Shown: one piece after another, positions 8,879 through 51,105 of the stretch
Layout of the letters: every line of letters starts with the position of its first letter
How positions within the stretch are numbered: the first letter of the stretch is position 1
Origin: Caldisericota bacterium
Lineage (GTDB): Bacteria; Caldisericota; JANLFM01
Reading direction: 5' to 3'
NCBI GenBank assembly: GCA_024655865.1
Contig: JANLFM010000001.1
Coordinates: 126,397 to 184,571, forward strand
Length of the DNA stretch: 58,175 nt
The notes under the pieces: generated by a model
Seen by the model: only the letters and a program-made list of their open reading frames with translations
The model's database searches: none
Told to the model about the DNA's origin: nothing
Made by a program: the position numbers and the translations under genes

Positions 8879-9153
8879 TTCCCCTCCTTGGCAAAAACCT
8901 TTAGTGGCGTAGCACGCAAAGGCGGCCGCACAACAGTGGGCCTCGTTTTGACTTCGTCAATGGGAACATTCAAGTGTTGGGCGAGCTCTCGAAGGACGAG
9001 GATCCTGCAGGTTTTCCCGCCGCAGGGTCCCATCCCTATTCTCAGGACGCGCTTGAGCTGATCCCAGGAGGTATACCCTTCCTTAATGGCGTTCCGCACA
9101 TCCTCCAGGGTAATATCCTCGCAGCGACAGATAATCACCTTTTTAGGATCCAT
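8875..9153 (-). CDS. BFD-like [2Fe-2S]-binding subunit (PdhX-like)
   Basis: A 92-residue protein with the bacterioferritin-associated-ferredoxin-type 2Fe-2S site: CRC at residues 9-11 and CGGKTC at 44-49. I place the start at the ATG at 9153 because a strong AGGAGG site lies just upstream and the domain begins there; the frame stays open further upstream but only as read-through over the neighbouring gene. Small subunits like this occur as the delta subunit of archaeal proline dehydrogenase and as the C-terminal part of HcnB. It probably passes electrons between the two flavoproteins of the complex. Confidence 0.82.
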   Translation of the reverse strand: MDPKKVIICRCEDITLEDVRNAIKEGYTSWDQLKRVLRIGMGPCGGKTCRILVLRELAQHLNVPIDEVKTRPTVVRPPLRATPLKVFAKEGK

Positions 9154-9154
9154 A

Positions 9155-9643
9155 TCATTCTCTCCTCCTGAAGAAGCGCACTTCCATAATCTTCTCTGGC
9201 GGCACGCTGATGCGCACAAGCGAGGTCTTGGTCTTCTTATCAATTCCGGGTAAGGAATAAACCCTTTCCACTCTTGCCTCACAAACCGCCCTCCCGTATC
9301 TGTCCAGGCCGTCCACGATCTCTCCCGGGTTGGGCAGGGGAACGAACTCGTAGGCCAAGGTGATCAGCCCTCGATCTTCCTTCAACTCCATGAGGAAAAT
9401 AGCTATCCCTGGGCAAGCGGCAACGCACAAGCCACATCCGTTGCATAATTCATGATTTATCCTAGGGGTGGAAACCAGGGTCTCCATGGTAATAGCTTTT
9501 GTGGGGCAGGAATAGACACAGGGATCGCAGGGGATATCCTGGTAGCATTCGTGCATGGCCACGGCCTTCTTACGCATGCGCTCTTCCGTGGGCATGCTCG
9601 TTTTTAAATTCTCAAAAGTAGGAACGCCGTCAACCTCGATCAT
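9155..9643 (-). CDS. 4Fe-4S ferredoxin subunit of amino acid dehydrogenase (PdhF-like)
   Basis: A 162-residue protein with two 4Fe-4S motifs, Cys39/42/46 with an additional upstream Cys33, and Cys67/70/73/77. It resembles the PdhF gamma subunit of Thermococcus-type proline dehydrogenase in size and position. The start is the ATG at 9643, two bases after the upstream stop and behind an AAAGGAG site. It would link the internal flavins to an external acceptor such as ferredoxin or a quinone; the acceptor is not visible here. Confidence 0.83.
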   Translation of the reverse strand: MIEVDGVPTFENLKTSMPTEERMRKKAVAMHECYQDIPCDPCVYSCPTKAITMETLVSTPRINHELCNGCGLCVAACPGIAIFLMELKEDRGLITLAYEFVPLPNPGEIVDGLDRYGRAVCEARVERVYSLPGIDKKTKTSLVRISVPPEKIMEVRFFRRRE

Positions 9644-9645
9644 TT

Positions 9646-10728
9646 TTACACTCCTTTTGTATGGAGGCGCTCTAACCCCTGGCAAACCTTCTCGCTTAGG
9701 GAGGACCGCCGGAATTGAGTGAGAAGCATCTTCAGTTCATCAATTTCATCCTTGTTCACCTCATATCCTAAATCCAGGGCCGTTTGCAGTCCGGATATCC
9801 TTCCCTGGAGGGCAGCTGTGGTAGCCTCCTCAATTCCCGCAACATCTCCGGCGACGAAAATTTCAGGATGGGAAGTGCGACCTGTTTCATCGTGCCAGGG
9901 AACAAATCCCCCCAGCTCCGGAATATAGTATTCCCTGACGCCAAGCTCGAAGAGGAGCTCGCTTAAGGGCATCAATCCCACCGCCAGAAGGACTACATCC
10001 ACAGAGAAGGTCCTCTCGGTACCAGGAATGGGCTGAAATTTTTCGTCCACCCCGATGGTCTCCGCTCTCTCCACGTGTCCCTCTCCATAAACCCCGGTGA
10101 TGGTCCTTTTCAAGAGAATGGGAACACCTGCCCTTTGAATCTTAGCGGCATGCACCCAGTAAGCTCCACCCAGGCGAGGAAGGATATCAATAATTGCTTC
10201 CACTTTAGCCTGAGCCTGGAGCAACTGGTAGGCCACGATCACTCCTACGTTTCCCGAACCTACAATCAGGTATCTTTCTCCGGGGAGGACACCATAAACG
10301 TTCATCAGGGTCTGCACTGCGCCAGCACCATAAACTCCGGGATAATCGTTGTTCTCGAAGGTAATCATGCGCTCAGAGGCTCCAGTGGCAATCACTACGC
10401 GTTTGGGCTTAATTTTGTAGAAATCCTCCAAATCAGCGGCTAACCAGATTCCGTCTTTATAGGCGCCAATTACTTCAAATCCTAAAAGGGTTCGAATGCG
10501 AGGGTGGTTTTGAATCTCACCTTCCCACTTTTGCGCCAGTTCAAATCCTCGAGCTCCTGCTCCGCGAGCTGCCCAGCCGAAAAACTTGTGAGTCTGTTTG
10601 ACTAACTGACCTCCCAGGTTTTGAAATCGGTCCACCAGGAGAACGGTGGCTCCGGCATTGGCTGCAGCGAGTGCCGCGTTCATACCCGCAGGCCCCCCTC
10701 CAACCACCAGGACGTCTGGCTCGATCAT
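9646..10728 (-). CDS. NAD(P)/FAD-dependent oxidoreductase subunit (PdhA/HcnB-like)
   Basis: A 360-residue two-dinucleotide-domain flavoprotein. The FAD motif GGGPAGMNAA is at residues 10-19, the second Rossmann motif is VGSGNVG near the middle, and the ATG motif-type FVAGDVAGI that binds FAD is near the C-terminus. The start at 10728 overlaps the stop of the 2Fe-2S gene (ATGA), so the longer upstream frame is rejected. It matches the alpha subunit of HcnABC, heteromeric sarcosine oxidase and archaeal PdhA, but lacks a fused N-terminal Fer2 and C-terminal BFD domain; here both are separate genes in the same operon. Confidence 0.85.
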   Translation of the reverse strand: MIEPDVLVVGGGPAGMNAALAAANAGATVLLVDRFQNLGGQLVKQTHKFFGWAARGAGARGFELAQKWEGEIQNHPRIRTLLGFEVIGAYKDGIWLAADLEDFYKIKPKRVVIATGASERMITFENNDYPGVYGAGAVQTLMNVYGVLPGERYLIVGSGNVGVIVAYQLLQAQAKVEAIIDILPRLGGAYWVHAAKIQRAGVPILLKRTITGVYGEGHVERAETIGVDEKFQPIPGTERTFSVDVVLLAVGLMPLSELLFELGVREYYIPELGGFVPWHDETGRTSHPEIFVAGDVAGIEEATTAALQGRISGLQTALDLGYEVNKDEIDELKMLLTQFRRSSLSEKVCQGLERLHTKGV

Positions 10729-11033
10729 TTGAGCACTCCCTTGTCTTTTTGAATTTCCACTTTCATCCCTTCCCTTAATGGCGTGATGCAAGTACGAATG
10801 TTTGGCTTGCCATCCACAACCATCAAGCAGGAGGAGCAATTACCGATAGCACAGAAAAAACCACGAGGCCTGTGAAGGTTCACACTTTCCCTCATCTCAT
10901 AGAAACCGTTGGCCACGAGAGCTGCAGCAATTGGCTCCCCTTCGTATCCCTCTACCTCTCGCCCTTCAAAAATGAATTTAACTTTTTTCTTGGGTGGGAA
11001 ATTAAGGATAGGATGGACTGTGATCCTGCGCAT
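10725..11033 (-). CDS. Fer2_4-type [2Fe-2S] protein (HcnA-like)
   Basis: A 102-residue plant-type 2Fe-2S domain with ligands Cys61, Cys66, Cys69 and Cys82. It is the counterpart of HcnA and of the N-terminal domain of the sarcosine oxidase alpha subunit. It is the first gene of the five-gene dehydrogenase operon; an AAGGAG site precedes the ATG at 11033, and the stop overlaps the next start. Confidence 0.85.
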   Translation of the reverse strand: MRRITVHPILNFPPKKKVKFIFEGREVEGYEGEPIAAALVANGFYEMRESVNLHRPRGFFCAIGNCSSCLMVVDGKPNIRTCITPLREGMKVEIQKDKGVLK

Positions 11034-36803: not shown

Positions 36804-38345
36804 ATGCCAGATAAGGCGATTTATGAAAAGATGGTAAAAGAGGCTGTAGGGGCTGCGAGGGCTGATTATGGTGTAATTAAGCAAAAGAGGGGTGGTCAAT
36901 TCAAACTTACCGACGCCAAGCCATACGTAGATGCTGCAACCTCAATGAAGCCCGGCCCGGGTCAATCCAAAGAGATCTTTGACCTTCACGTTGAGTCCGT
37001 AAAAGCCCATTATGACATTTTAGTAGGTCTCACTGATACCATCCGCCCCGAGGACGATCCCTTCGTAGAGCACTACCAGACACCCCCCATCCTGGAAATC
37101 CTTTATGAGGTAGACCCGGCTTTCAAGGCCTCGATGTGGAAGTTCATCGACGCCATCGCTGCCAACAAAGCCCTAGTCGGCCGCGAGGCTGCAAGGCGCT
37201 ACGGTGGCATGTATGGTCCCACCTGTGTTGTGGACTTCGCAATGTCGGTGGGCTCCACTTCCAACGTAGTCAACCAGATCCTGAGGACCCTGGACATTCC
37301 CGCTGACCACAAGAAGACCATTCTCGCTGCCAAGAGCTGGGGAATGAACACCTCCTACGGAATTGGCTCCGCTTTCCGGGCCGCCGTTGAAGCTGGGAAA
37401 ACCCTGGCCGAGGCCGAGCAGGCAGAGGTCGAGACGCTCCAGTTCATTTACCGCGAGCCGGTAGCTGCTCAGGCCCACCTGATGGACACCCATAACCTGG
37501 GCGGGCACGGACCGCACACCTCCTTCGATACGAGAAAATACATGGCCCAGTACAAGGAGAGAATCAGGCCATTCGTCTTGGCTGCTCTGAACGCTAAAGT
37601 ACATCCTGCAAACATCGTGGTTGTCCCCGCCTACTGCGTGGGTGACGTCGGCCACCATATTGCCCAGTCCGCTTATAACATGTTCAAGGATGACATGGTC
37701 TTCGGAATCTACGAAGCCGTCACGGACGTCTTAGAGAACACCCTGAGGAAGGGCCTGGAGCTGGATGCTTACAAGAGTGAATGGGACGTCCTGACTGTGG
37801 CAACCGGTGCCCCTGCTGCGGCCACAGCTTACATTCTCTGGTTGGATTCCTTCACCGTTCCCATGGTAATTGACCTCTTCACCAAGCGCTTCTACAACTA
37901 TGCCGCCATGAATCCCAAGCGCGGTGAGGCTGATGAGCTCCACAACGTGGACTTCATGGATATCCTCCTCCGCGGCGAGTCCATCCTGGACATCAGCCCC
38001 ATCGGCGGTGGCGCCAAGATCAAGGGAATTCCCATCGACTTCAGCCCCATTGACAAGCACGAGGCCGTTTCCAACCCGCAGCGCTACACCTATCCCGCCT
38101 GCGCCATCACCCAGCGCTTCGCCGCATTGATGAGCCTGGCGGACTTCCCCTGCTATCTCACTCCCGAGTGCGTAACGGCGACACTTTCCACTAACTGCAT
38201 CGCCTTCCACCCAGAGACCCCTGGCGCTCCCGTAAGAGGATGCAAGCACTGCGCTGCCACCACCTTAATTAAGAGGAACGTTCCCTTCGTCAAGGGAGTC
38301 GGAAAAGGCAACAAGGGTTACTGCCAGTGGGATGTAGCCGTATAA
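36804..38345 (+). CDS. DUF2193 family protein
   Basis: A 513-residue protein of DUF2193, which I know from methanogenic and related archaea and whose function is unknown. Visible features are a GQSKEIFDLHVESVKAHYD segment near 53-71, DPFVEHYQTPP near 87-97, a conserved YGGMYGPTCVVDFA-type stretch near 132-145, a His-rich loop HLMDTHNLGGHGPH near 226-239 and a cysteine group at the C-terminus (CKHC at 480-483, Cys507 in GYCQW) that could bind metal. No membrane segment or signal is seen. Codons become strongly C-ending in the body of the gene, unlike neighbours, suggesting high expression. It has its own terminator and precedes the H4MPT operon. Confidence 0.82.
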   Translation: MPDKAIYEKMVKEAVGAARADYGVIKQKRGGQFKLTDAKPYVDAATSMKPGPGQSKEIFDLHVESVKAHYDILVGLTDTIRPEDDPFVEHYQTPPILEILYEVDPAFKASMWKFIDAIAANKALVGREAARRYGGMYGPTCVVDFAMSVGSTSNVVNQILRTLDIPADHKKTILAAKSWGMNTSYGIGSAFRAAVEAGKTLAEAEQAEVETLQFIYREPVAAQAHLMDTHNLGGHGPHTSFDTRKYMAQYKERIRPFVLAALNAKVHPANIVVVPAYCVGDVGHHIAQSAYNMFKDDMVFGIYEAVTDVLENTLRKGLELDAYKSEWDVLTVATGAPAAATAYILWLDSFTVPMVIDLFTKRFYNYAAMNPKRGEADELHNVDFMDILLRGESILDISPIGGGAKIKGIPIDFSPIDKHEAVSNPQRYTYPACAITQRFAALMSLADFPCYLTPECVTATLSTNCIAFHPETPGAPVRGCKHCAATTLIKRNVPFVKGVGKGNKGYCQWDVAV

Positions 38346-38418: not shown

Positions 38419-38524
38419 ATCGGAGGGGGCTTAATTCATTCAATGGAAACCCTTCCTTGATTTTTCATGAAAAGGGGCTCGGATTGTTTTAAAATAATTC
38501 CAAATCAATTGCTTGGAGGTGAAA

Positions 38525-39403
38525 ATGAAAAACGTACTTATTTACCTTGATACTGATAAAAGAGCCAGCCTTTTTGACATCCTTTTTTCCTACGATGTCG
38601 GGTATGATGTAGTGGTCCCACTGGGAGGGGTTACGGCTGATGAAGTGAGAGCACTGGTTCAGGATGCCATGTTTCCCAGGGGACCGCAGGGAGCGAAATG
38701 CACCACCCTCTTCTTTGGCGGAAGCAACCCTGAGGAGGCCGAGGAGATGGCAGAAATTGCGAGGAAGACTATGTTCCCGCCCTTCCAGCTTTCCGTCGTT
38801 ATCGACCCCAAAGGAGCATTCACCACGTCCTCTGCCATGATCGCAAAAGCTGTGGAGGCCTTGAAAACCAGAAACGAAAGCCTTCAGGGTAAGAGGGCCC
38901 TGATCCTCGCCGGAACCGGACCTGTAGGAAGAATCGCCGCCAGGATCCTCGCAAAAGAGGGCGTGAATGTTTTCCTTACTTCCCGTTCAAGCAAAAAAGC
39001 TGAAGAAATCGCGGAAAAGGTAACTCAAAAGGTGGGAAAACTCGTGAAAGGGGTAAAAGCGGAAACCCCGGAGGAAGTCTTCGCGCTGGCTCAAGATTGC
39101 GAGCTCCTCCTTTCCACGGGAGCTGCGGGAGTGGAATTAATCCCCCAGAGTTATGTCGAGAAACTTTCTAAATGCCTTGTTGCTGTGGATGCTAACGCTG
39201 TCCCTCCCACTGGAATTGGCGGCGTCAATCCCGGCGACGACAAGAAGGAAGTCGGGAAAGCACTGGCAGTTGGGGCGCTCGCCGTAGGCGGTTTGAGGAA
39301 CAAGATCGCACGGAAAATGCTCCAGGTGGCAATGGAAACCGGGGGATCTTTCCTCGATTACGAAAGCGGGTACAAATTTGCAAAGGAACTGGTGGGGTTT
39401 TAG
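38525..39403 (+). CDS. mtdB: NAD(P)-dependent methylene-tetrahydromethanopterin dehydrogenase
   Basis: Oxidises methylene-H4MPT to methenyl-H4MPT with NAD(P)+. The 292-residue product has the N-terminal Mpt_N-type domain (IYLDTDKRASLFDI, then PRGPQGAK near 51-58) and a Rossmann domain with GTGPVGR at 130-136, followed by an SRSSKKAEE cofactor-selectivity loop compatible with NADP. I start it at the ATG at 38525 because GGAGGT is four bases upstream; the TTG at 38513 overlaps that site. It is the first gene of the C1 operon. The NAD(P) type is the one found in methylotrophic bacteria, in contrast to the F420-dependent archaeal Mtd. Confidence 0.9.
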   Translation: MKNVLIYLDTDKRASLFDILFSYDVGYDVVVPLGGVTADEVRALVQDAMFPRGPQGAKCTTLFFGGSNPEEAEEMAEIARKTMFPPFQLSVVIDPKGAFTTSSAMIAKAVEALKTRNESLQGKRALILAGTGPVGRIAARILAKEGVNVFLTSRSSKKAEEIAEKVTQKVGKLVKGVKAETPEEVFALAQDCELLLSTGAAGVELIPQSYVEKLSKCLVAVDANAVPPTGIGGVNPGDDKKEVGKALAVGALAVGGLRNKIARKMLQVAMETGGSFLDYESGYKFAKELVGF

Positions 39404-39418
39404 GCAATTATAGAAAAA

Positions 39419-40591
39419 TTGCGCATCCTGATTACGGGTTTTTCAACCAGAGGGATTGCGGAAGCCGCAGTAAGGAGTGGATATTCTGCGGTAACCATCG
39501 ATTTCTTTGGCGATTACGATCAGCGCTTGCTTGTGAAGAATTACTCCTTAATGCGGGACTTTGGACTCTCCTTTTCTACAAAAAACATTTTGCAGGTTTC
39601 AAGCAAAATCAAAACGGAAGCCGATGCTCTGGTCTACATTTCCCCCTTTGAGAACCATCCCGGGGACGTGCAGAGAATGAGCCGCGGTCGCATGCTCCTG
39701 GGGAACGCTCCGGAATCATTGAGAAAAGTACGCAACTGGCGCCTTATCCGTTCTTTCTTAAAGGAAGAGGGTATCGGTTTTCCGGAAACCATCTTCACGG
39801 GGGAGACGCTCCCCCAGTCCGGAACCTGGGTAGTAAAACCGGTAAAAAGCGGCGGTGGTCATAGGATTAAACTCTGGCAGGGTGAACGGCTGAAAAAGGG
39901 ATACTTTCTGCAAAAGCTGGTAAATGGCATTCCTTGCTCAGCAGTTTTCGTAGCCAATGAAGAAAAAAGCGTGCTCCTGGGAATCACGGAGCAGTTAATC
40001 GGAAGGCCCGAATTAGGGTCCAGGGGGTTTACCTGGTGCGGCAACATTACCCCTGTTGAACTGGATAAAGAAGCCCTTGAGACTTTAGTTACAAGAATTG
40101 ATGAGATCGCTTTTAAGCTAACCAAGTTCTTCGGGCTCAGGGGCATTAACGGCTTCGATTTCATTCTCTCCGAACCAGATAACGCACCCGTCCTTGTGGA
40201 AATCAATCCCAGGTATCCAGCTTCCGTGGAAATAATTGAAGCAGCTTTTGGCCTTCCCGTCTTCGACATCCATGTCAGGGGATGCCTGGGAAAGCTTCCA
40301 GATTTCTCTCTGGGCGAGCGACTTAATAACCCTCGTTATTACGGGAAAGCTATTGTCTATGCGAAGGAAGACGTGAGAATTCCTCCTGAGGCCGCTTATT
40401 GGGTTCTTTTAAAAAGAAAGGACGTACCCTTTCCGGGCGAAACTATCAGGAAAGGGCACCCTATCTGCACTGTGTTTGCCACCGGCGAGACGAGAGAGGA
40501 ATGTTGGAACGCTCTTTTGACTGAGGCGGGGAAATTAGAAGCAGAACTCAAACCCTGCCTTATCTTGACATCCAAGGAGAAAGAAGAATGA
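39419..40591 (+). CDS. ATP-grasp ligase, COG2232 type
   Basis: A 390-residue ATP-grasp protein. It begins MRILITGFSTRGIAEAA, an N-terminal preATP-grasp fold, with the ATP-binding WVVKPVKSGGGHRI segment near 140-153 and the metal-binding INGFDF and EINPRYPAS motifs near 242-265. Homologues (COG2232) occur in archaea and in bacterial H4MPT gene clusters, so it is probably a carboxylate-amine ligase in pterin or methanofuran synthesis; this is inference. The start is TTG (no nearer ATG), 15 bases after mtdB. Confidence 0.78.
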   Translation: MRILITGFSTRGIAEAAVRSGYSAVTIDFFGDYDQRLLVKNYSLMRDFGLSFSTKNILQVSSKIKTEADALVYISPFENHPGDVQRMSRGRMLLGNAPESLRKVRNWRLIRSFLKEEGIGFPETIFTGETLPQSGTWVVKPVKSGGGHRIKLWQGERLKKGYFLQKLVNGIPCSAVFVANEEKSVLLGITEQLIGRPELGSRGFTWCGNITPVELDKEALETLVTRIDEIAFKLTKFFGLRGINGFDFILSEPDNAPVLVEINPRYPASVEIIEAAFGLPVFDIHVRGCLGKLPDFSLGERLNNPRYYGKAIVYAKEDVRIPPEAAYWVLLKRKDVPFPGETIRKGHPICTVFATGETREECWNALLTEAGKLEAELKPCLILTSKEKEE

Positions 40592-40929
40592 AAAGCTGGA
40601 AATTCTTGTTAATTACGGGCCGCAGCTTAAAACAGGGGCAAGCGGCCGAACAAGGAAAGTTCTCCCCGGAATACATTAATGAGACCACTACCGTAGAGAT
40701 TGGTAAAGAGGACGCCGAAAAACTCGGGTTAAGTGATGGTATGGAAGTAAAGTTAAAAAATACCTGCGGGGAGGGCATCTTTCATGTGCGGATCTCTCAG
40801 GGGTTGCCCTCCGGAATCCTGTTCATCCCCTACGGCCCTTCAGCTAACTTACTCATTCCCGCAGAGACCGGAGGCACCGGAATGCCCGGTTGCAAAGGGA
40901 TTGATGTAGAACTTTTGAAGGAGAGATAA
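40588..40929 (+). CDS. fwdD: formylmethanofuran dehydrogenase subunit D
   Basis: A 113-residue molybdopterin-dinucleotide-binding domain with the FwdD layout: LLITGRSLKQG near 7-17, TTTVEIGKEDAEKLGLSDG in the middle, and a VRISQGLPSGILFIPYGPSAN segment near 67-87, ending with the GTGMPGCKGIDVEL motif. In archaea FwdD closes over the W/Mo bis-MGD bound by FwdB. Bacterial methylotroph Fhc complexes do not use such a subunit. Start overlaps the previous stop (ATGA); its stop abuts fwdB (TAAATG). Confidence 0.88.
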   Translation: MKSWKFLLITGRSLKQGQAAEQGKFSPEYINETTTVEIGKEDAEKLGLSDGMEVKLKNTCGEGIFHVRISQGLPSGILFIPYGPSANLLIPAETGGTGMPGCKGIDVELLKER

Positions 40930-42198
40930 ATGGAAACTATAAGTGCAACCTGTCCGTTTTGCGGATGCCTTTGCGATGATATCCAGATTGTTGTGGAGAA
41001 TGGGAAAGTGCTGGAGGTGAAAAATGGGTGCAGCATCTCTAAGACTTTGTTCACCCACCATGATCCGGATGATCTGGTACCGCAAATTGAGGGCAAGAAA
41101 GCGAGCCTGGAGGAAGCTCTTGATAGGGCAGCCTCCATCATCCGCCAGGCTCGCTTTCCGCTCGTGTTTGGGCTTTCCATGACAAGCTGCGAAGCCCAAA
41201 GGAAGGCTGTGGAACTTGCGGAGTTCATCGGAGGGAATATCGACAGCACTTCAACGTTCTGCCATGGTCCCACAACACTTGCCATGCAATCGGTTGGGGA
41301 ACCAACCTGCACCCTTGGAGAGATTAAAAATCGAGCGGACCTGGTGGTATTCTGGGGATGCAACCCGGTGGAGGCCCACCCAAGGCACATTGCCAGATAT
41401 TCGGTGTCACCGAAGGGGTTGTTCAACCCTGCCGGGAGGAGAGGAAGAACCGTGGTAACGGTGGATGTAAGGGCTACCCCTACAGCTCGGGTCTCGGATA
41501 TTTTCCTCCAAATCCAGCCTCACAAAGACTACGAGGTATTTGAGGTGCTCCGGGCTCTCCTTAAGGGAAAAGACCTGCGCATTGACAGTGTGGGCGGAAT
41601 CCCCCTTGATGCCCTGAAAGACCTGGTGAACAAAATGAAGAGCTGCAAATTCGGGATCATTCTCTTCGGCATGGGTTTGACGATGACCAGGGGCCGACAC
41701 CTGAATATAGAGGCTGCCATCTCGCTCGTTCGAGACCTCAACCAGTTCACCAAGTTCCTGATTATCCCGATGAGAGGGCACTATAACGTCACTGGAGCAG
41801 ATGCTGTGCTCACCTGGCAGACAGGATACCCCTACGCTTTAAACTTCAGCCGTGGTTATCCACAATATAATCCAGGAGAATTTACTACCGTTGACCTTTT
41901 GCGCAGGAAGGAAGTGGACGCGGCTTTAATCCTTGCATCAGATCCCATGGCCAGTTTGCCCCGCCAGGCATCGAGTTATCTGGAAGAAATTCCTTTTGTA
42001 GTGCTGGATTGCAGGAAAAGCTATTCTGCCAGTTTCGCTACCGTTTTTATACCTGTGGCTGCTTCAGGAGTGAGCATCTCCGGGACCGCCTATCGCATGG
42101 ATGGTGTTCCCGTCCTTTTAAAAAAGGTCCTGGATTCCCCGCACCCCACGGATGAACAAGTTCTGGATGGCATACTCAAGAGGTTAAGGCAAAGATGA
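40930..42198 (+). CDS. fwdB: formylmethanofuran dehydrogenase subunit B, redox-type
   Basis: The catalytic redox subunit that interconverts CO2 and formate at a molybdenum or tungsten centre, which the FwdA site then condenses with methanofuran. The 422-residue protein begins with the 4Fe-4S motif CPFCGCLCDD (8-17, with Cys34 as further ligand). The metal-ligating cysteine is present as TFCHGP (Cys111), as in archaeal FwdB/FmdB, whereas non-redox bacterial FhcB lacks it. Further motifs are WGCNPVEAHPRH and the MRGHYNVTGAD region. Bis-MGD would be made with the MobA at 50.5-51.1 kb. Confidence 0.9.
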   Translation: METISATCPFCGCLCDDIQIVVENGKVLEVKNGCSISKTLFTHHDPDDLVPQIEGKKASLEEALDRAASIIRQARFPLVFGLSMTSCEAQRKAVELAEFIGGNIDSTSTFCHGPTTLAMQSVGEPTCTLGEIKNRADLVVFWGCNPVEAHPRHIARYSVSPKGLFNPAGRRGRTVVTVDVRATPTARVSDIFLQIQPHKDYEVFEVLRALLKGKDLRIDSVGGIPLDALKDLVNKMKSCKFGIILFGMGLTMTRGRHLNIEAAISLVRDLNQFTKFLIIPMRGHYNVTGADAVLTWQTGYPYALNFSRGYPQYNPGEFTTVDLLRRKEVDAALILASDPMASLPRQASSYLEEIPFVVLDCRKSYSASFATVFIPVAASGVSISGTAYRMDGVPVLLKKVLDSPHPTDEQVLDGILKRLRQR

Positions 42199-43829
42199 TT
42201 CGCATAACCAAAGGAAAAGTATATGACCCGATAAATGGCATCAACGGCAAGGAATTAGATATCTGGGTTGATGGGGGAAAAATCGTTCAGGTCGGTGACG
42301 CCCCGGATCTCGTTGCCGAGCGCATAATTGATGCCGAAGGTTGCATCGTAATGCCGGGAGGAATAGATATCCATTCCCATATTGCTGGGGGTAAAGTCAA
42401 TCTTGGCAGGAAACTGAGGCCAGAAGATCATCGCAAGGACGTTGTGCCCAGAACAGAGACAACCCGCTCCGGAGTGGGCCACTCCATTCCTTCCACTTTC
42501 GTTACCGGTTATCGGTATGCGCAAATGGGTTACACCATGGTCATGGAAGCTGCGATGCCTCCATTAACGGCAAAACACACTCACGAGGAATTGCACGACA
42601 TTCCTATAATTGACAAGGGCTCCTATACCCTGATGGGAAACAACCACTTCATTTTAAAGTTCATCGAAAAGGGTGAAATTGAGAAAGTGAAGTCCTTCAT
42701 CTCCTGGTTATTGAAAACCACCAAGGGTTATACGATCAAAATCGTCAATCCCTGTGGGGTCGAAAGCTGGAAGTGGGGGAAAAATGTGGAAAACATTGAC
42801 CAGCAGGCTGCCGATTACGCCGTCACCCCAAGACAACTGATTTCCATTTTGTCCCAGATAGCGGATGAGCTCGGTCTCCCCCACTCCATCCACCTGCACT
42901 GTAACAACATCGGAGTTCCGGGAAACTACGAAACCACCGTTGAATCGATGAAGGCCACGGGTACAAACAGAGTCCACGTCACTCATGCTCAGTTTAATAG
43001 TTACGGAGGAAAGGGCTGGGCTGATATCCACTCAAAAGCTCGGGAGGTCGTCGAGTACGTAAATGAGCACCCAAACGTCACTTTTGATGCTGGGCAAATC
43101 GTGTTCGGCGATACCACAACCATGACCGCCGATGGACCATGGCAGTATCGTTTATATCTTTTATCGGGAAACAAGTGGGTCAACGCCGATGTGGAAATGG
43201 AGACCAGTGCTGGTATCGTACCCTATACCTTCCGCAAGAAAAGCCTGGTCAATGCCGTCCAGTGGGCAATTGGTCTGGAACTAATGCTTCTCGCCGAGGA
43301 TCCCTGGAGGGCGTTCATGACCACTGACCATCCAAATGGGGGGCCCTTCACCTTCTATCCCCAGATCATCAAACTCTTAATGAGCAGAGCCGCAAGGGAA
43401 GAGATGATTGCTCAACTTCCCAGGAGAGCTCTCGAAAGGATCTCTCTTCCCCAAATTACCAGAGAATACTCCCTTTACGAGATAGCGATAATTACCAGAG
43501 CTGCTCCCAGCAAGCTTCTCGGGTTACACCAGAAGGGGCATCTGGGTGTCGGGGCGGATGCGGACATCGCTATTTACAGGGAAAACCCTGACGTTGAGAA
43601 AGTGTTCTCTTCCGTCCAGTATTTGCTCAAAGATGGGGAGGTCGTGGTAGAAAACGGCATTGTGCTCAAAAGCACCTCGGGGAGAATCCTCTATGTGGAT
43701 CCCGGGGAAGAAGGAGATATTGAGGAATACATCCGTGAGGAGTTCGAGAAGTTCTACACAGTCACTCTGGATGGCTATGGAGTTCCTGAAAATTACCTGG
43801 AGCGGGGTGAATGCGTATCATGTGGATAA
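42195..43829 (+). CDS. fwdA: formylmethanofuran dehydrogenase subunit A
   Basis: An amidohydrolase-fold subunit carrying the binuclear zinc site that condenses formate with methanofuran. The 544-residue product has the HxH motif GIDIHSHIAGG (His60, His62), the lysine expected to be carbamylated in TIKIVNP (Lys182), the ligand-bearing HLHCNN and HVTHAQF motifs, and the catalytic aspartate in TTDHPNGG. All expected residues appear intact. Start and stop overlap neighbours (ATGA before; 19-base overlap with ftr). Confidence 0.94.
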   Translation: MIRITKGKVYDPINGINGKELDIWVDGGKIVQVGDAPDLVAERIIDAEGCIVMPGGIDIHSHIAGGKVNLGRKLRPEDHRKDVVPRTETTRSGVGHSIPSTFVTGYRYAQMGYTMVMEAAMPPLTAKHTHEELHDIPIIDKGSYTLMGNNHFILKFIEKGEIEKVKSFISWLLKTTKGYTIKIVNPCGVESWKWGKNVENIDQQAADYAVTPRQLISILSQIADELGLPHSIHLHCNNIGVPGNYETTVESMKATGTNRVHVTHAQFNSYGGKGWADIHSKAREVVEYVNEHPNVTFDAGQIVFGDTTTMTADGPWQYRLYLLSGNKWVNADVEMETSAGIVPYTFRKKSLVNAVQWAIGLELMLLAEDPWRAFMTTDHPNGGPFTFYPQIIKLLMSRAAREEMIAQLPRRALERISLPQITREYSLYEIAIITRAAPSKLLGLHQKGHLGVGADADIAIYRENPDVEKVFSSVQYLLKDGEVVVENGIVLKSTSGRILYVDPGEEGDIEEYIREEFEKFYTVTLDGYGVPENYLERGECVSCG

Positions 43830-44707
43830 ATGGAGTAGAAATTGAAGATACCTTTGCCGAGGCCTTCAAAATGTATGCCGCGAGGATCATCGTCACGGCC
43901 GTTAACCGCCAATGGGCTTTGGAAGCAGCAACCAAGTTATCCGGCTTTGCCACCTCCATCATCGCTTGCGGATGTGAGGCAGGAATAGAAGCGGAAATTT
44001 CTCCGGAAGAGACTCCCGATGGTCGTCCCGGGGTATCTGTGCTCCTCTTTACCATGGGGAAAAAGGGAATGGAGGAACAACTGCTTAATCGCATCGGCCA
44101 GACAGTTATGACCTGCCCGACAACTGCCTGCTTTAACGGAGTAACCTCCCAGGAAAAGGTTAAGGTCGGCGGAAAACTGAGGTACTTCGGAGATGGTTTT
44201 CAAATAAGCAAGCTTCTTGGGGAAAGAAGGTTCTGGCGAATCCCGGTCATGGAAGGAGAATTTCTGGTGGAGGACTATTTCGGGATCCAACCAGCGGTGG
44301 GGGGAGGAAATTTTCTCATCCTGGGGGAAACTCCGGAGCAAACCCTGAAGGCGGCGGAGAGAGCTGCCGAGGCTTCAAGGAGTGTCAAAGGGGTAGTGCT
44401 GCCTTTCCCGGGTGGGATCGTCAGAAGTGGAAGTAAAGCGGGCTCCAGATACAAATTTCTGCGCGCCTCCACCAACACGGCTTTCTGCCCCACGATCAGG
44501 GAGCAGGTGAAATCCGAACTCCCACCTGGAGTGAATTGTGTCCTGGAGATAGTCATCGATGGCCTGGATGAGGAAGTTATCCGGCAATCGATGAAGCGCG
44601 GCATTGAAGCAGCCTGTATCGAGGGCATAAAGAGGATTTCCGCAGGAAATTATGGGGGTAAGCTTGGTCCCTTCCATTTTTATCTCCATGAATTATTCAA
44701 ACAATGA
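43811..44707 (+). CDS. ftr: formylmethanofuran-tetrahydromethanopterin N-formyltransferase
   Basis: Moves the formyl group between methanofuran and H4MPT. The 298-residue length matches the family. Motifs include the opening GVEIEDTFAEAFKMYAARI-like segment, IIACGCEAGIE near 55-65, TTACFNG near 98-104, and a C-terminal AACIEGIKRISAGNYGGKLG-type end. It overlaps the end of fwdA and precedes fwdC with an ATGA overlap, so its level is tied to the Fwd subunits. The order fwdA-ftr-fwdC resembles fhcA-fhcD-fhcC of methylotrophs. Confidence 0.95.
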   Translation: MRIMWINGVEIEDTFAEAFKMYAARIIVTAVNRQWALEAATKLSGFATSIIACGCEAGIEAEISPEETPDGRPGVSVLLFTMGKKGMEEQLLNRIGQTVMTCPTTACFNGVTSQEKVKVGGKLRYFGDGFQISKLLGERRFWRIPVMEGEFLVEDYFGIQPAVGGGNFLILGETPEQTLKAAERAAEASRSVKGVVLPFPGGIVRSGSKAGSRYKFLRASTNTAFCPTIREQVKSELPPGVNCVLEIVIDGLDEEVIRQSMKRGIEAACIEGIKRISAGNYGGKLGPFHFYLHELFKQ

Positions 44708-45549
44708 GCGGGGTTGGAGAAATGAATGAGATCTTATTGAGACCAAAAGTTGAATTCGACGTCCCGGTGGAAGCTGAGGTCATTTCGCCAGACCTCTTCG
44801 CTGAAAAAAGCCACGAGGAGATTGGAAGCCTGCCTGTTTTTTTAGGCAACAGGAAAATGTGCCTGAAGGACCTATTCGAAATAGAAGGTCAGTCCTCAAC
44901 GAACATTGTCCTGGAGGGCGACTTTTCCCGGGTGAAAAAAATCGGTTACGGCATGTCTCGAGGGAAAATTCACATTAAAGGTAACGTGGGAATGCACACC
45001 GGAGCCACTATGAAAGGCGGGGAAATCATCGTTGAGGGTGACGCTATGGACTGGCTGGGTGCCGAAATGAACGGCGGATTGATTTGGGTTAAGGGCAGTG
45101 TTGGCCACTTCGCGGGAGCATCCTACTGGGGGAGTAAGCATGGAATGAATCGGGGCATGATCCTGATCGAGGGAAATACCGGAAACGAAGTAGGAAAGAA
45201 AATGCGCAGGGGCACAATCGCCATAAAGGGAAAAACGGGAGACTTTTTGGGAGTAGGTATGATCGGAGGAACTATCCTTGCCTTTTCTGAGACCGGAGAA
45301 AGACCAGGAGCCGAGATGAAGAGGGGAAGCATTGTTCTCTTTCTGGAAAACTGTACCAACCCTCCTCCGCTTCTTCCCACCTTCACTTATAACTGCACAT
45401 ACAGCCCTACCTTCCTTAGGGTTTACCTAAAAACCCTAAGGAAACTCGGATTTCCGGTTAAGGAAGAGTACATTTCTGGGAAGTACAGGCGCTATAACGG
45501 GGACATCGTGGAATTAGGGAAAGGAGAGATCCTGATTTATGAACCCTGA
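44704..45549 (+). CDS. fwdC: formylmethanofuran dehydrogenase subunit C
   Basis: A 281-residue right-handed beta-helix protein related to the C-terminal domain of glutamate synthase. Glycine-rich GxxM repeats run from about 75 to 210 (GYGMSRGKI, GATMKGGEI, GAEMNGGLI, GMNRGMI, GKKMRRGTI, GVGMIGGTI, GAEMKRGSI). It is the scaffold subunit in Fwd and Fhc complexes. An alternative start is the ATG at 44725. The end overlaps mch by 11 bases. Confidence 0.93.
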   Translation: MSGVGEMNEILLRPKVEFDVPVEAEVISPDLFAEKSHEEIGSLPVFLGNRKMCLKDLFEIEGQSSTNIVLEGDFSRVKKIGYGMSRGKIHIKGNVGMHTGATMKGGEIIVEGDAMDWLGAEMNGGLIWVKGSVGHFAGASYWGSKHGMNRGMILIEGNTGNEVGKKMRRGTIAIKGKTGDFLGVGMIGGTILAFSETGERPGAEMKRGSIVLFLENCTNPPPLLPTFTYNCTYSPTFLRVYLKTLRKLGFPVKEEYISGKYRRYNGDIVELGKGEILIYEP

Positions 45550-46480
45550 GCTCAGTTTAAACCTTCAAGCCGAAAAAATAGTTGAGCGAATGATCGAACA
45601 AGCCCCCATCCTGGGTATAACCGTCAAGGAACTGGGAAACGGTTCTAAAATTTTGGATGCTACTTTCGGAGGATACCGGGCCGGCAAATTGTTCGCAGAG
45701 GTGTGCATGGGTGGACTGGGAGAGGTTACCCTTACCTCTCTGGAATTCTCCTCCCTTTCCTTGCCGGGGGTGAGCGTCTCCGTTGAGTATCCCTTCCTTG
45801 CCTGTCTTGCTTCCCAATACGCTGGCTGGAGCATCAAGGTGGGCAGTTTCTTTGCCCTGGGCTCAGGACCGGCACGGGCTTTAGCGCGAGTAGAGAAACT
45901 TTTTGAGGAGTTGAAATACGAAGAGAGCGCGGACAGGGCGGTAATAGTTCTGGAATGCAGAAATGCCCCAAGCGAGGAGGTCGCGAATTATGTAGCTCAA
46001 CAATGCCGGGTGAAACCTGAAAACCTCTATATCCTTTTTGCCCCCACAGCAAGCCTCGTGGGTTCCATCCAGATTGCCGCGCGAATAGTTGAAACAGGGA
46101 TGCATAAGATGAAGGAATTGGGGTTCGACATCAAGAAAGTACTCGCAGGCTACGGTACCTGCCCCATCGCCCCTATTGCTAAGGACGACCTCCAGGCTAT
46201 TGGAAGAACTAACGACTGCGTTCTTTACGGTGGCAAGGCTTTCTATCTGGTAGAGGACAATGAGAACCTGATTGCCGATATAGTATCTGAAGTACCCTCC
46301 TCCGCTTCCCGAGATTACGGAGCCCCCTTCCTGGAGTTATTCAATCGCTATGGAAATTTCTACGATATCGATCCCATGCTCTTCAGCCCGGCTGAGGTCT
46401 ATGTGAACAACCTGACAAATGGAAAAACTTACCACGCAGGGCAACACAACCTGGAAATCCTTCAGAGATTGCTGAGTTGA
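45539..46480 (+). CDS. mch: methenyl-tetrahydromethanopterin cyclohydrolase
   Basis: Interconverts methenyl-H4MPT and N5-formyl-H4MPT. The 313-residue trimer-forming enzyme has the family motifs DATFGGYRAG near 38-47, EVCMGGLGEV, FFALGSGPARALAR near 104-117, and YGTCPIAPIAKDDLQAIGRTND near 203-224. It completes the set linking methylene-H4MPT to CO2 together with mtdB, ftr and fwdABCD. It overlaps fwdC upstream and the ligase gene downstream. Confidence 0.95.
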   Translation: MNPELSLNLQAEKIVERMIEQAPILGITVKELGNGSKILDATFGGYRAGKLFAEVCMGGLGEVTLTSLEFSSLSLPGVSVSVEYPFLACLASQYAGWSIKVGSFFALGSGPARALARVEKLFEELKYEESADRAVIVLECRNAPSEEVANYVAQQCRVKPENLYILFAPTASLVGSIQIAARIVETGMHKMKELGFDIKKVLAGYGTCPIAPIAKDDLQAIGRTNDCVLYGGKAFYLVEDNENLIADIVSEVPSSASRDYGAPFLELFNRYGNFYDIDPMLFSPAEVYVNNLTNGKTYHAGQHNLEILQRLLS

Positions 46481-47355
46481 AAATAGGAATACTGGGGCAA
46501 AGGAGAAGCTGGCACGTCCAGACTTTACAGGATGCCTTTTTAAGAAAAGGGGCCGTTTGCGATTTTCTCTCTATCACCCGTATCGTAGCTGGAATTTTCC
46601 AGAGACCCTATGCCTCTACCGAAGGGCGGATACTGGAGAGCTACGACGCTCTGGTTGTGAGAAGCATCCCCTCTGGATCGCTTGAGCAGATTATTTTCCG
46701 CGTGGACGTCCTGCACAGGCTGGAGAACCTTGGTGTCAAGGTAATCAATTCCGCCACTACCCTGGAAAGGAGCGTGGACAAGTATTACACCTCTTCTCTC
46801 CTTGAGGACGCCGGCATCCCTACTCCCCGCACTATAGTGGCGGAGCGCTTCGAAAACGCCATGGAAGCGTTCCTCCAATTTAAGGATGTTGTGGTCAAGC
46901 CCCTTTTTGGCTCGGAAGGGAAGGGAATTGTCAGAATCCAGGATGAGGATATGGCATACAGGGTATTCAAGGCTCTGGAGTTAGGAAATTACATCTTCTA
47001 CATTCAGGAGTTTATCCCTCACCGAAACCGGGACATCAGGGTTTTCCTCGTTGGTGACGAACCAATAGCAGGAATGGTAAGGGAAAGCGATCTATGGAAA
47101 ACCAATATCGCAAGGGGGGCTAAAGCCCAGGCCCTTGAGCTTACCACTACTCTGAAAGACCTCAGCATCAGAGCCGCCAAAATCCTGGGGGCATTTTATG
47201 CAGGAGTGGACATTCTGGAAAGCGAGGATGGGAAATTGTTCGTGACCGAGGTTAACGGGATTCCAGGCTGGCATGGCTTGCAGAGCACTACGGATATCAA
47301 CATAGCTGAGCGCATAGCGGAACACGTGATTATGCTGACTCAGGAGCAAAGATGA
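46477..47355 (+). CDS. RimK-family ATP-grasp ligase, MptN-like
   Basis: A 292-residue RimK-type alpha-L-glutamate ligase. ATP-grasp signatures are VKPLFGSEGKGI near 134-145, the YIQEFIPHRNRDIRVFLVG segment near 172-190 and the metal-binding VTEVNGIPGWHG near 246-257. In methanogens the related MptN adds glutamate to H4MPT to give sarcinapterin, and CofF acts on F420; lying after mch in the H4MPT operon, an MptN-like role is the better guess. The start is a TTG in a TTGA overlap with the mch stop. Confidence 0.8.
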   Translation: MKIGILGQRRSWHVQTLQDAFLRKGAVCDFLSITRIVAGIFQRPYASTEGRILESYDALVVRSIPSGSLEQIIFRVDVLHRLENLGVKVINSATTLERSVDKYYTSSLLEDAGIPTPRTIVAERFENAMEAFLQFKDVVVKPLFGSEGKGIVRIQDEDMAYRVFKALELGNYIFYIQEFIPHRNRDIRVFLVGDEPIAGMVRESDLWKTNIARGAKAQALELTTTLKDLSIRAAKILGAFYAGVDILESEDGKLFVTEVNGIPGWHGLQSTTDINIAERIAEHVIMLTQEQR

Positions 47356-48230
47356 AAAAAGGTAATAAAGCCCGCCTGAGCGCAAAAGAGGTGTCACAAT
47401 TAGCGCAAATTGCCTGTCTTTTGGAAGTCACTGCGGAGAAACCCGGCAATGTCACCCGGTGGAAAGATGCCAGTGATATGGGCTATTTGGATTTTCTTTT
47501 AAGCGCCGTGGCTATAGCACCGGCCATCGAGAGCGCCAGGAACAAAGCTGTGGGGGAGGTGATTTTGAAGGCCATCAGGGATACGCACCGCTTCACCTCT
47601 TTTAATACCAACCTAGGGATCGTGCTTCTTTTCGCCCCCATAGCGAAAGCATATTTCTCTGGCAGTAACCTCAGGGATTCCTTGCATGGGGTTCTTTCTT
47701 CCCTCACCGTAGAGGACGCGCAGAAAACCTACGAGGCGATCAGGATCGCTAATCCAGGTGGAATGGGAAAAATCGAAAAGTATGATATCAGTCAGAAAGA
47801 AGTGGACATCAACTTAAAGAAGGCTATGGAATTAGCGCAGGACAGGGACCTGATCGCCAAAGAGTATGTGACCGACTTCGAAATTACTTTTACCCTGGGA
47901 GTCCCAGAACTGATGAAAAACTGGAGGAAGTTAGGAAGCTTATTGGATTCGATCGTACAAACCTTTCTCGTTATCCTCTCCCAAAATTGGGACTCCAAAA
48001 TTTCCCGTACGCATGGGAAAAAAGTCGCCCAGGAAGTCACCTCCAGGGCAAATGAAATTCTCGAAGCAGGGGGAATTTATACTCCTCTTGGTAGGAATTT
48101 ACTTACCCAATTCGATCTTTTTTTGAGAGAGAACAAACTGAACCCCGGTACTACAGCAGATCTGGTCACGGCTTCTCTATTCGTGGCATTTCTTGAGGAG
48201 GGCCTCGAAGAATTCTTCAAAGAGCATTGA
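47352..48230 (+). CDS. CitG/MdcB-like triphosphoribosyl transferase family protein, copy 1
   Basis: A 292-residue protein of the triphosphoribosyl-dephospho-CoA synthase family (COG1767). The family motif near the N-terminus reads TAEKPGNVTRWKDA (about 27-40), and the second motif reads FNTNLGIVLLFAPIA (about 77-91). CitG displaces adenine from ATP and attaches the ribose triphosphate to an OH of dephospho-CoA. No citrate or malonate lyase genes are near; the genes around are for H4MPT, so a ribosyl transfer in pterin cofactor synthesis is a plausible role. ATGA overlap with the ligase gene. Confidence 0.82.
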   Translation: MKKGNKARLSAKEVSQLAQIACLLEVTAEKPGNVTRWKDASDMGYLDFLLSAVAIAPAIESARNKAVGEVILKAIRDTHRFTSFNTNLGIVLLFAPIAKAYFSGSNLRDSLHGVLSSLTVEDAQKTYEAIRIANPGGMGKIEKYDISQKEVDINLKKAMELAQDRDLIAKEYVTDFEITFTLGVPELMKNWRKLGSLLDSIVQTFLVILSQNWDSKISRTHGKKVAQEVTSRANEILEAGGIYTPLGRNLLTQFDLFLRENKLNPGTTADLVTASLFVAFLEEGLEEFFKEH

Positions 48231-49252
48231 ACCCGATGGATAAGCCTATAGAAGGCTATTACCTCGAATCGGTGGAGGGGTTTTTCTTTGCCGTAAAAGG
48301 GGTGATCCACCCTCCTTGTAGGATTTTCGCTATCTTAAGATACGCACCGGATGAAGCAGGAGAAAGGGTCAGAAAAGGAATCCGCTATCGCAGACTGTAC
48401 GAGTTTGAAGAGCAGCAAGCCCTGCTTGAAAAGAAAAACCCTTCTTACCTATTATTTGATCCCATTTTGGGAACCTGGGTCCAGTGCGTTCCCAACGAGC
48501 TTATAGGAAAGATCCACAGTCCCCGCCTGAAGCTGGAGGAATTTCGCCACAGGGAGCTGGACGAGGTGGAAACGGACGTCCTTCAGCTTGCTGAGCTCCT
48601 CGAAAAGGAATCGGGAATATGGGGCTGGGATTTAGGCGTTTCTGGTTCCGTTCTCCTTGGGCTTCACCTGTCAGATTCGGATATTGACCTCGTCGTATAT
48701 GGCGCTGAACCCTCGAGAAAGGTCTATGCGACCTTAACCAGGTTAATAGAGGGCTCCGTTGGCGGTCTTAAAAGGTTGGACATGGAAGATTTAAGGCAGC
48801 TCTACAGGCGCCGTTCTCAAGAAAGAGCTGTCTCTTTTGAAATGTTCCAAAAAACGGAACACGGTAAGGTGTTACAGGGTAAATTCCGGGGGAGGGAGTA
48901 TTTCATCAGGCTGGTAAAGGAACCCTGGGAAGTAAATGAGAAATACGGTGATAAAATATATTCCTCCCTGGGAAAGGTTAAAATTAGAGGAAAAGTCAAG
49001 GATGCGAGCGAAGCTTTTTTCACTCCCTGTACCTATAAAATCGAGGAGGTTGAAGTTCTGGAAGGTAAAACCGCAGCCATCCCCGGGGAGATAGTCTCCT
49101 TTCGGGGGAGATTTTGCGAGCAGGCAAAGGAGGGAGAGATCGTCCTGGCCAGGGGAAAATTAGAAAAAATACTTTCCAATGAAGGGAAGGTAAATTACAG
49201 GATCCTCCTCTGCGACTCTGAAGATTTCATGATTCCGGAATTTCCAGATTAG
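48227..49252 (+). CDS. COG1665-type predicted nucleotidyltransferase
   Basis: A 341-residue protein with a nucleotidyltransferase-fold motif in the middle: VSGSVLLGLHLSDSDIDLVVYG (about 137-158), where the GS and DxD residues are those used for metal and NTP binding. The N-terminal 110 and C-terminal 120 residues are specific to this family, which I know from archaea. The reaction is not known. It is the last gene of the operon; the start may be the TTG at 48227, in a TTGA overlap, or the ATG at 48236. Confidence 0.72.
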   Translation: MNPMDKPIEGYYLESVEGFFFAVKGVIHPPCRIFAILRYAPDEAGERVRKGIRYRRLYEFEEQQALLEKKNPSYLLFDPILGTWVQCVPNELIGKIHSPRLKLEEFRHRELDEVETDVLQLAELLEKESGIWGWDLGVSGSVLLGLHLSDSDIDLVVYGAEPSRKVYATLTRLIEGSVGGLKRLDMEDLRQLYRRRSQERAVSFEMFQKTEHGKVLQGKFRGREYFIRLVKEPWEVNEKYGDKIYSSLGKVKIRGKVKDASEAFFTPCTYKIEEVEVLEGKTAAIPGEIVSFRGRFCEQAKEGEIVLARGKLEKILSNEGKVNYRILLCDSEDFMIPEFPD

Positions 49253-50460: not shown

Positions 50461-51105
50461 CTAATATAACTCATTATGATCCAATATTGCGCCCTCTCTT
50501 CCCAAAAGGAGTGCCCTCTTCAGATCTGATGGTGAATTGATGTTGAAGAAGCTAATCATTTGAGGGTCAAAATTTATGATCTCTTCCTCCTCCAGGTACC
50601 TCACGTGGAGGTTTGAAAGAGCGAGCGTGAGCTTAAGGAGGTTTTTCTCCAGATCACTTTTAAAAGCGGGAAGGCATTCTCTGGAGTAGAGCGCATGGAG
50701 GGGTTGAACTTTGCCTTTAAGACGGGGGACAACCGCATCGAATCCTGGAACAATTTCGACCATATGCAGGAGAAGGGTGCGATTAAGAAAGGGCATGTCG
50801 CATCCAAAAGCAAAGGCCAGTTGAGTTTTGCTCGAAGAAATTCCGGTATAGAGTCCCCCAAGCGGCCCGCGTGCCGGGAAAATGTCGGGTATTATTCTCG
50901 TTTTAGGGTGATGCATGGGCAGGGTCTGATCATCAGAGATTACCAGAATCTCATAACTGAGGAGTTCCACCCTTTTTATAACCCACTCGAGCAGGGGTTT
51001 TCCCAAAAAGGGCAGGGTGGCTTTACTTCTCCCCAGGCGCTTTCCCTGCCCACCAGCAAGAATTATAGTGCTGACCCTTTGGGAAATAGAGTCGAGGTTC
51101 TCCAT
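50461..51105 (-). CDS. mobA: molybdenum cofactor guanylyltransferase
   Basis: Joins GMP from GTP to molybdopterin to make MGD, the precursor of the bis-MGD cofactor in FwdB. The 214-residue product has the nucleotide loop LAGGQGKRLGRSKA near 17-30, the PARGPLGGLYTGI segment near 77-89 and the metal site GCDMPFL near 100-106. No Moco biosynthesis genes other than this are in the window. Its position facing the fwd genes supports the call of a pterin-metal containing Fwd. It follows citG-like copy 2 by 27 bases. Confidence 0.9.
   Translation of the reverse strand: MENLDSISQRVSTIILAGGQGKRLGRSKATLPFLGKPLLEWVIKRVELLSYEILVISDDQTLPMHHPKTRIIPDIFPARGPLGGLYTGISSSKTQLAFAFGCDMPFLNRTLLLHMVEIVPGFDAVVPRLKGKVQPLHALYSRECLPAFKSDLEKNLLKLTLALSNLHVRYLEEEEIINFDPQMISFFNINSPSDLKRALLLGREGAILDHNELY

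What the first reader, a model, noticed from the sequence alone, without database searches (positions are those of the whole stretch)
38525..49252. Redox-type (archaeal) formylmethanofuran dehydrogenase inside a bacterial H4MPT operon
The operon holds mtdB, fwdD, fwdB, fwdA, ftr, fwdC and mch. Seen directly: FwdB keeps the CPFCGCLC cluster motif and the metal-ligating Cys111 (TFCHGP), and fwdD is present. Known: the Fhc complex of aerobic methylotrophs lacks an active redox B subunit and works as a formyltransferase/hydrolase. Inference: this bacterium can oxidise formyl-MFR to CO2, or fix CO2, at a W/Mo centre, while mtdB uses NAD(P) as in methylotrophs. The gene order B-A-ftr-C resembles bacterial fhc, so this looks like an intermediate between archaeal Fwd and bacterial Fhc.
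Basis: partly seen in the sequence, partly recalled or inferred. Interest (0 to 1): 0.85.

Follow-up and report, generated by a model that had tools for sequence, protein, structure and literature searches.

The report
Bacterial CO2-linked formylmethanofuran dehydrogenase operon
A bacterium carries, in one operon with the rest of a methanogen-like one-carbon pathway, the metal-dependent form of an enzyme that interconverts CO2 and a bound formyl group; this is real and intact, but the same operon is already known from, or shown here in, many other bacteria, so it is a new member rather than a new kind.

Summary
Window 38525-48230 encodes MtdB, a MyfA-like ATP-grasp ligase, FwdD, FwdB, FwdA, Ftr, FwdC, Mch, a MyfB/MptN-like ligase and a CitG-like protein. 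FwdB keeps four cluster cysteines and Cys111, which aligns with metal-ligating Cys118 of the solved tungsten enzyme; that column is Cys (one Sec) in all 80 redox FwdB rows compared but Gly/Ala/Ser in six FhcB. FwdB falls outside the FhcB clade, in a mostly bacterial redox clade; the contig is bacterial. The genome has MoaC, a MobA-like gene near the operon and no recognised formate dehydrogenase, so CO2-level redox chemistry at FwdB is the best reading. It lacks ACS, MTHFR and Fae, so Wood-Ljungdahl autotrophy and canonical formaldehyde entry are not supported. Bacterial redox Fwd is already published (PMC7325909, PMC10100899), and the same gene set appears here in Chloroflexi, Actinobacteria, Desulfobacteraceae, NC10, Bacillota and others. 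'Intermediate between Fwd and Fhc' is only partly supported. Leads: DUF2193 (36804-38345) is linked to this operon across phyla and never co-occurs with canonical Fae in the sample; a sister lineage lost the metal ligand independently of Fhc; one actinobacterial FwdB has an in-frame TGA exactly at Cys111.

The parts
36804..38345 (+). DUF2193 protein, function unknown, linked to the operon in several phyla
   Evidence: PF09959 766 bits; adjacent or within ~7 kb of the operon in 8 of 11 carrying genomes
38525..39403 (+). mtdB, NAD(P)-type methylene-H4MPT dehydrogenase (possible TTG start at 38513)
   Evidence: Mpt_N; PDB 6TGE/1LU9 E~1e-50
39419..40591 (+). ATP-grasp ligase, MyfA/OrfY (MfnD)-like, methylofuran/methanofuran side chain
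   Evidence: ATP-grasp_3, weak MfnD hit, homologue of the ATP-grasp gene beside MtdB in Azospirillum; MyfA role from PMC8141765
40588..40929 (+). fwdD, molybdopterin-dinucleotide-binding subunit
   Evidence: PF01568, FwdD model 80 bits (below its 175 cut-off)
40930..42198 (+). fwdB, catalytic redox subunit with Cys8/11/15/34 cluster ligands and Cys111 metal ligand
   Evidence: TIGR03129 568 bits; 5T5I/8RJA alignment; 93 of 98 conserved redox columns kept
42195..43829 (+). fwdA, amidohydrolase subunit with all metal-ligand motifs
   Evidence: TIGR03121 780 bits; 5T5I A alignment; ligand motifs
43811..44707 (+). ftr, formylmethanofuran:H4MPT formyltransferase
   Evidence: TIGR03119 443 bits
44704..45549 (+). 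fwdC
   Evidence: TIGR03122 272 bits
45539..46480 (+). mch, methenyl-H4MPT cyclohydrolase
   Evidence: TIGR03120 402 bits
46477..47355 (+). RimK-type glutamate ligase, MyfB or MptN-like
   Evidence: MptN model 291 bits, below its 350 cut-off; 35% to the RimK ligase beside mch in Azospirillum
47352..48230 (+). CitG-like protein found in the same place in methylotroph clusters
   Evidence: PF01874; 'triphosphoribosyl-dephospho-CoA synthase' in L121
48227..49252 (+). nucleotidyltransferase-like protein of unknown role, co-located in Chloroflexi and Bathyarchaeota loci
   Evidence: PF01909; homologues in L010, L016
50461..51105 (-). mobA-like molybdenum cofactor guanylyltransferase, convergent, near the operon
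   Evidence: PF12804; MobA models up to 163 bits, below their cut-offs

Best explanation
The operon encodes a complete formyl branch of H4MPT-linked one-carbon metabolism that ends in a redox-active FwdABCD formylmethanofuran dehydrogenase. Most likely use: methylene-H4MPT is oxidised by MtdB with NAD(P)+, Mch opens methenyl-H4MPT to formyl-H4MPT, Ftr moves the formyl group to a polyglutamylated furan carrier made with the two ATP-grasp ligases, FwdA hydrolyses it to formate inside the complex, and FwdB/FwdD oxidises that formate to CO2 at a bis-MGD Mo or W centre, passing electrons through the FwdB [4Fe-4S] cluster to a ferredoxin. Shown: genes, order, catalytic residues, phylogenetic place. 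Inferred: metal, carrier, electron acceptor and direction; all steps are reversible and the reductive direction is possible. My estimate: redox-active 0.85; oxidative as the main direction 0.6. The source of methylene-H4MPT is unknown because Fae was not found.
For: FwdB and FwdA align end to end with solved FwdB/FwdA. Cys111 column: Cys (one of them Sec) in 80 of 80 redox rows, Gly/Ala/Ser in six FhcB. In one actinobacterium the same codon is TGA in an otherwise open frame, as in methanogen Sec-FwdB (family motif UHxP in PMC13188914). FwdD present. FwdA metal-site motifs intact. MoaC twice in the own genome and a MobA-like gene near the operon. The only other PF00384 match in the genome is a NuoG/HoxU-like protein beside a NiFe hydrogenase, so no formate dehydrogenase was recognised to deal with free formate. 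FwdB lies in a 27-row starred clade with 23 named bacteria and one archaeon, apart from FhcB. Operon conserved in the same genus, FwdB 81% identical.
Against: No FwdF/FwdG/FwdE gene in or beside the operon, so the electron acceptor is not identified. No Fae and no MTHFR in the genome, so the neighbouring steps are missing or done by other families; Mer and Mtr were not searched. RFAP synthase and most H4MPT biosynthesis genes were not searched in the genome. Direction cannot be read from sequence.
Confidence: 0.75

Rival explanations
1. It works as an Fhc: Ftr plus FwdA transfer and hydrolyse the formyl group and release formate, and FwdB is only a scaffold.
For: Gene order B-A-ftr-C and the MyfA/MyfB/CitG-like neighbours are those of methylotroph Fhc clusters. 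FwdA metal site is intact.
Against: Cys111 and 93 of 98 redox-conserved FwdB columns kept, against 42-52 of 98 in FhcB; fwdD present, absent from Fhc clusters; FwdB outside the FhcB clade; no formate dehydrogenase recognised in the genome.
Confidence: 0.1
2. The operon runs reductively and fixes CO2, either as the methyl branch of a Wood-Ljungdahl pathway or to supply methylene groups for biosynthesis.
For: Fwd is the CO2-fixing entry enzyme in methanogens (established knowledge); a NiFe hydrogenase with a NuoG/HoxU-like partner is in the genome and HypA/HypB-like genes lie on the same contig.
Against: No ACS, no MTHFR. MtdB in methylotrophs works oxidatively with NAD(P) (established knowledge). 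Mer was not searched.
Confidence: 0.25
3. The operon is an archaeal contaminant or a chimeric contig.
For: FwdA groups near archaeal FwdA in the single-gene tree.
Against: The 189-kb contig holds bacterial housekeeping genes (GyrA, LeuRS, AlaRS, GlyQS, LepA, GroEL-like, DnaG-like by inspection); even G+C through the window; same operon and flanks (ino1 91%, citG2 89%) in the congener.
Confidence: 0.02

Closest known systems
FwdABCD/Fmd formylmethanofuran dehydrogenase of methanogens (PDB 5T5I, 8RJA, 9SFI)
   Same: A, B, C, D subunits, metal ligand Cys, cluster cysteines, FwdA ligands
   Different: No FwdF/G/E in the operon; sits in a bacterial operon with MtdB, Ftr, Mch and cofactor ligases
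fwdDBA-ftr-fwdC operon of Hakuba actinobacteria (PMC7325909) and bacterial FwdB in general (PMC10100899)
   Same: Same order and same intact Cys and cluster motif
   Different: Here mtdB, mch and ligases are in the same operon and ACS is absent; the Hakuba genomes have the Wood-Ljungdahl pathway and the authors did not observe methanopterin synthesis genes
Fhc of aerobic methylotrophs (PDB 6S6Y; Azospirillum, Azoarcus, Thiodictyon clusters)
   Same: Order B-A-ftr-C; in Azospirillum also MtdB, Mch, ATP-grasp, RimK and CitG neighbours
   Different: FhcB lost the metal ligand, Fhc clusters have no fwdD, and Azoarcus pairs it with fae
Chloroflexi/Acetocimmeria/Clostridiales PH28/Desulfobacteraceae operons (L016, L028, L046, L053, L031)
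   Same: mtdB-ATP-grasp-fwdD-B-A-ftr-C-mch-mptN order
   Different: Some have H4MPT synthesis genes inserted between fwdA and ftr; FwdB 53-56% identical

Membership tests
FwdB/FmdB (redox formylmethanofuran dehydrogenase subunit B) | TIGR03129 above cut-off | tested here: met
   568 vs 328 bits
FwdB/FmdB (redox formylmethanofuran dehydrogenase subunit B) | Cys or Sec metal ligand at the CHGP motif | tested here: met
   Cys111 = Cys118 of 5T5I
FwdB/FmdB (redox formylmethanofuran dehydrogenase subunit B) | Four N-terminal [4Fe-4S] cysteines | tested here: met
   Cys8, 11, 15, 34
FwdB/FmdB (redox formylmethanofuran dehydrogenase subunit B) | Separate FwdD MGD-binding subunit | tested here: met
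   40588-40929, PF01568
FwdB/FmdB (redox formylmethanofuran dehydrogenase subunit B) | Mo or W with bis-MGD bound | not testable with these tools
   only cofactor genes seen: MoaC, MobA-like
Archaeal Fwd holoenzyme | FwdF/FwdG polyferredoxin partners | tested here: inconclusive
   none in the operon or recognised by inspection on the contig; genome not searched for them
Fhc formyltransferase/hydrolase complex | B subunit without metal ligand | tested here: not met
   Cys111 present
Fhc formyltransferase/hydrolase complex | No D (MGD-binding) subunit | tested here: not met
   fwdD present
Fhc formyltransferase/hydrolase complex | FwdA hydrolase site intact and Ftr in the same operon | tested here: met
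Wood-Ljungdahl H4MPT branch | ACS (CdhC/AcsB) | tested here: not met
   PF03598 absent from the genome
Methylotrophic H4MPT pathway | Fae formaldehyde-activating enzyme | tested here: not met
   PF08714 absent

The most novel reading that the evidence does not exclude
DUF2193, whose function is unknown, is the entry enzyme that loads one-carbon units on H4MPT in these bacteria in place of Fae. It sits next to or near this operon in Chloroflexi, Actinobacteria, Bacillota and GBS-1, in three loci beside a MIP channel for small solutes, and never co-occurs with canonical Fae in the bacterial genomes sampled.
Probability: 0.12. Interest if true: 0.7.

Novelty: new member of a known kind. Interest (0 to 1): 0.42.

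Why it matters
It adds a small bacterial lineage to those with a redox Fwd beside MtdB, and shows such operons outside the Wood-Ljungdahl setting (no ACS, no MTHFR, no Fae). Together with the relative that lost the metal ligand independently, it makes the repeated step from CO2-linked dehydrogenase to formate-releasing hydrolase testable by direct comparison of two close complexes. It also gives DUF2193, a conserved methanogen protein without a function, a pathway context.

Tried and rejected
Cluster motif as evidence of redox activity: rejected as non-diagnostic, since most FhcB keep it; it was also used as a search pattern, so its conservation among the retrieved rows is partly built in, whereas Cys111 was not used. 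A second, degenerate fwd operon 'in the same genus' (G001 contig C2): its tree place is sister to the window's operon and a union with Fhc is rejected (AU p 6.8e-6, grouping chosen after seeing the tree), but its G+C (0.42 vs 0.51) and tetranucleotide profile are foreign to G001, so I treat it as a relative's contig, not a proven paralogue. DUF2193 fold: model of moderate confidence (pLDDT 70) and no PDB match under E 0.001; no sequence match in PDB. DUF2193 versus Fae: Fisher p 0.003 among bacteria, but only 4-6 independent pairs on the tree, too few for significance, and 3 of 11 have distant Fae-like proteins. Ftr of locus L055 was mislabelled between its two operons in the first concatenation; the tree was rebuilt. 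Naming the organism: not possible with these tools; the genome's phylum has 54 held genomes and the operon was found only in its genus. The paper of Adam et al. 2019 (doi 10.1038/s41564-019-0534-2), the key comparison, is not held.

Full report
What is there. On the + strand: DUF2193 (36804-38345), mtdB (38525-39403), an ATP-grasp ligase (39419-40591), fwdD, fwdB, fwdA, ftr, fwdC, mch, a RimK-type ligase, a CitG-like gene and a nucleotidyltransferase-like gene (to 49252). From the ATP-grasp gene to the nucleotidyltransferase-like gene the neighbours abut or overlap by up to about 20 bases, as in one transcription unit (inference). A MobA-like gene lies downstream on the other strand (50461-51105).

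Is FwdB the redox type? Yes by every sequence test available. It aligns end to end with solved archaeal-type FwdB, best 8RJA (E 8e-132) and 5T5I (E 3e-130), and only over its C-terminal half and much more weakly with 6S6Y (E 1e-18), which I take to be the Fhc B subunit of Methylorubrum. Cys111 aligns with the metal ligand Cys118. In an alignment of 80 other redox rows the column is Cys throughout (one Sec entered as Cys); in six FhcB it is Gly, Ala or Ser. Of 98 columns conserved at 90% in redox FwdB the window keeps 93, the FhcB rows 42-52. FwdA keeps its metal-site motifs.

Where does it sit in the family? The FwdB tree puts it in a starred clade of 27 rows, 23 of them named bacteria plus the archaeon UBA186, and apart from FhcB. 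FwdA alone puts it nearer archaea with weak support; Ftr gathers all bacteria, FhcD included, with support 77-80. The concatenated FwdA-Ftr-FwdC tree leaves the deep bacterial branches open. So the bacterial redox enzymes and Fhc share a gene neighbourhood and probably a history, but which is ancestral to which was not resolved here.

How new is it? Not new as a kind. The fwdDBA-ftr-fwdC order with intact cysteines was described in Hakuba actinobacteria (PMC7325909). A survey counted 149 bacterial FwdB and proposed transfer from archaea (PMC10100899). The scan of genome contigs gave the same or nearly the same gene set in Chloroflexi, Actinomycetota, Methylomirabilota, Desulfobacteraceae, Bacillota and others, with fwdD-fwdB also in Planctomycetota.

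What the genome adds. The window is on a 189-kb contig with bacterial housekeeping genes of a 1.82-Mb, 96% complete genome. Among five genomes of its class only the congener has the operon, and none other of 54 in the phylum. The genome has no ACS, no Fae, no MTHFR; it has FolD, GcvT and MoaC twice. PF00384 finds only FwdB and a 550-residue NuoG/HoxU-like protein next to NiFe hydrogenase genes. Without a recognised formate dehydrogenase, an Fhc that releases formate would leave it unused, whereas a redox Fwd oxidises it in place (inference).

Proposed working. MtdB, Mch and Ftr convert methylene-H4MPT to a formyl group on a furan carrier; FwdA hydrolyses it, formate reaches FwdB through the complex as in the archaeal enzyme (established for 5T5I, assumed here), and FwdB/FwdD oxidises it to CO2. 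The two ligases resemble MyfA and MyfB, which build the polyglutamate tail of methylofuran (PMC8141765). The ferredoxin partner, the metal and the main direction are inferred. How methylene-H4MPT is made is open: Fae was not found and Mer was not searched.

DUF2193. It is 94% identical in the congener and about 74-82% in Chloroflexi, Actinomycetota and GBS-1, more conserved than FwdB. In 8 of 11 carriers it is next to or within about 7 kb of the operon; in the other three it lies on a different, short contig. In L037, L116 and L117 a MIP channel gene follows it (by inspection). None of 11 carriers has canonical Fae, against 8 of 14 bacteria without DUF2193 (p 0.003), but phylogenetic pairs are too few to test this. 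The only paper found suggests a metal-binding motif and an iron-related response in Methanococcus voltae (PMC9431491). Methanosarcina acetivorans has both DUF2193 and Fae, which argues against simple replacement there. The fold search gave nothing.

A parallel loss. The low-G+C contig L100, binned with G001, has ATP-grasp-fwdB-fwdA-ftr-fwdC-RimK without fwdD and mch; its FwdB has Trp at the ligand position while keeping the cluster cysteines, and its FwdA site is intact. The tree makes it sister to the window's operon and rejects a union with Fhc. If the contig is sound, the step from dehydrogenase to a hydrolase-type complex happened more than once.

Noticed in passing
L064:777-2030 (Actinomycetota bacterium AS06rmzACSIP_249): FwdB with an in-frame TGA exactly at the Cys111 position (YUHGP), otherwise open: a likely bacterial selenocysteine FwdB. 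The RNA after the TGA has a small hairpin but its folding is not significant (z -1.4).
   Followed up: partly
L100:1-8860 (contig binned with G001): Fwd-like operon without fwdD and mch whose FwdB lost the metal ligand (Trp) but keeps cluster cysteines; composition foreign to the bin.
   Followed up: partly
L055:9495-20300 (Gammaproteobacteria RBG_16_51_14): A redox fwdDBA-ftr-C set and an Fhc set (B without the ligand) side by side in one locus.
   Followed up: partly
L006 (Euryarchaeota UBA186): An archaeal locus with a bacterial-type MtdB (43% identical) near a similar fwd operon; its FwdB joins the bacterial clade.
   Followed up: no
window 7712-10839: Sarcosine oxidase/proline dehydrogenase-like FAD subunits (nearest solved chain 1Y56_B) with an Fe-S ORF between; a possible source of one-carbon units.
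   Followed up: partly
G001 contig C1 (L104:216-2939): A formate dehydrogenase-like protein on a low-G+C contig, perhaps of the same foreign organism as L100.
   Followed up: no
G000 contig C60 (L103:7472-11122): NiFe hydrogenase small and large subunits with a NuoG/HoxU-like protein; HypA/HypB-like genes near the end of the window's contig.
   Followed up: no
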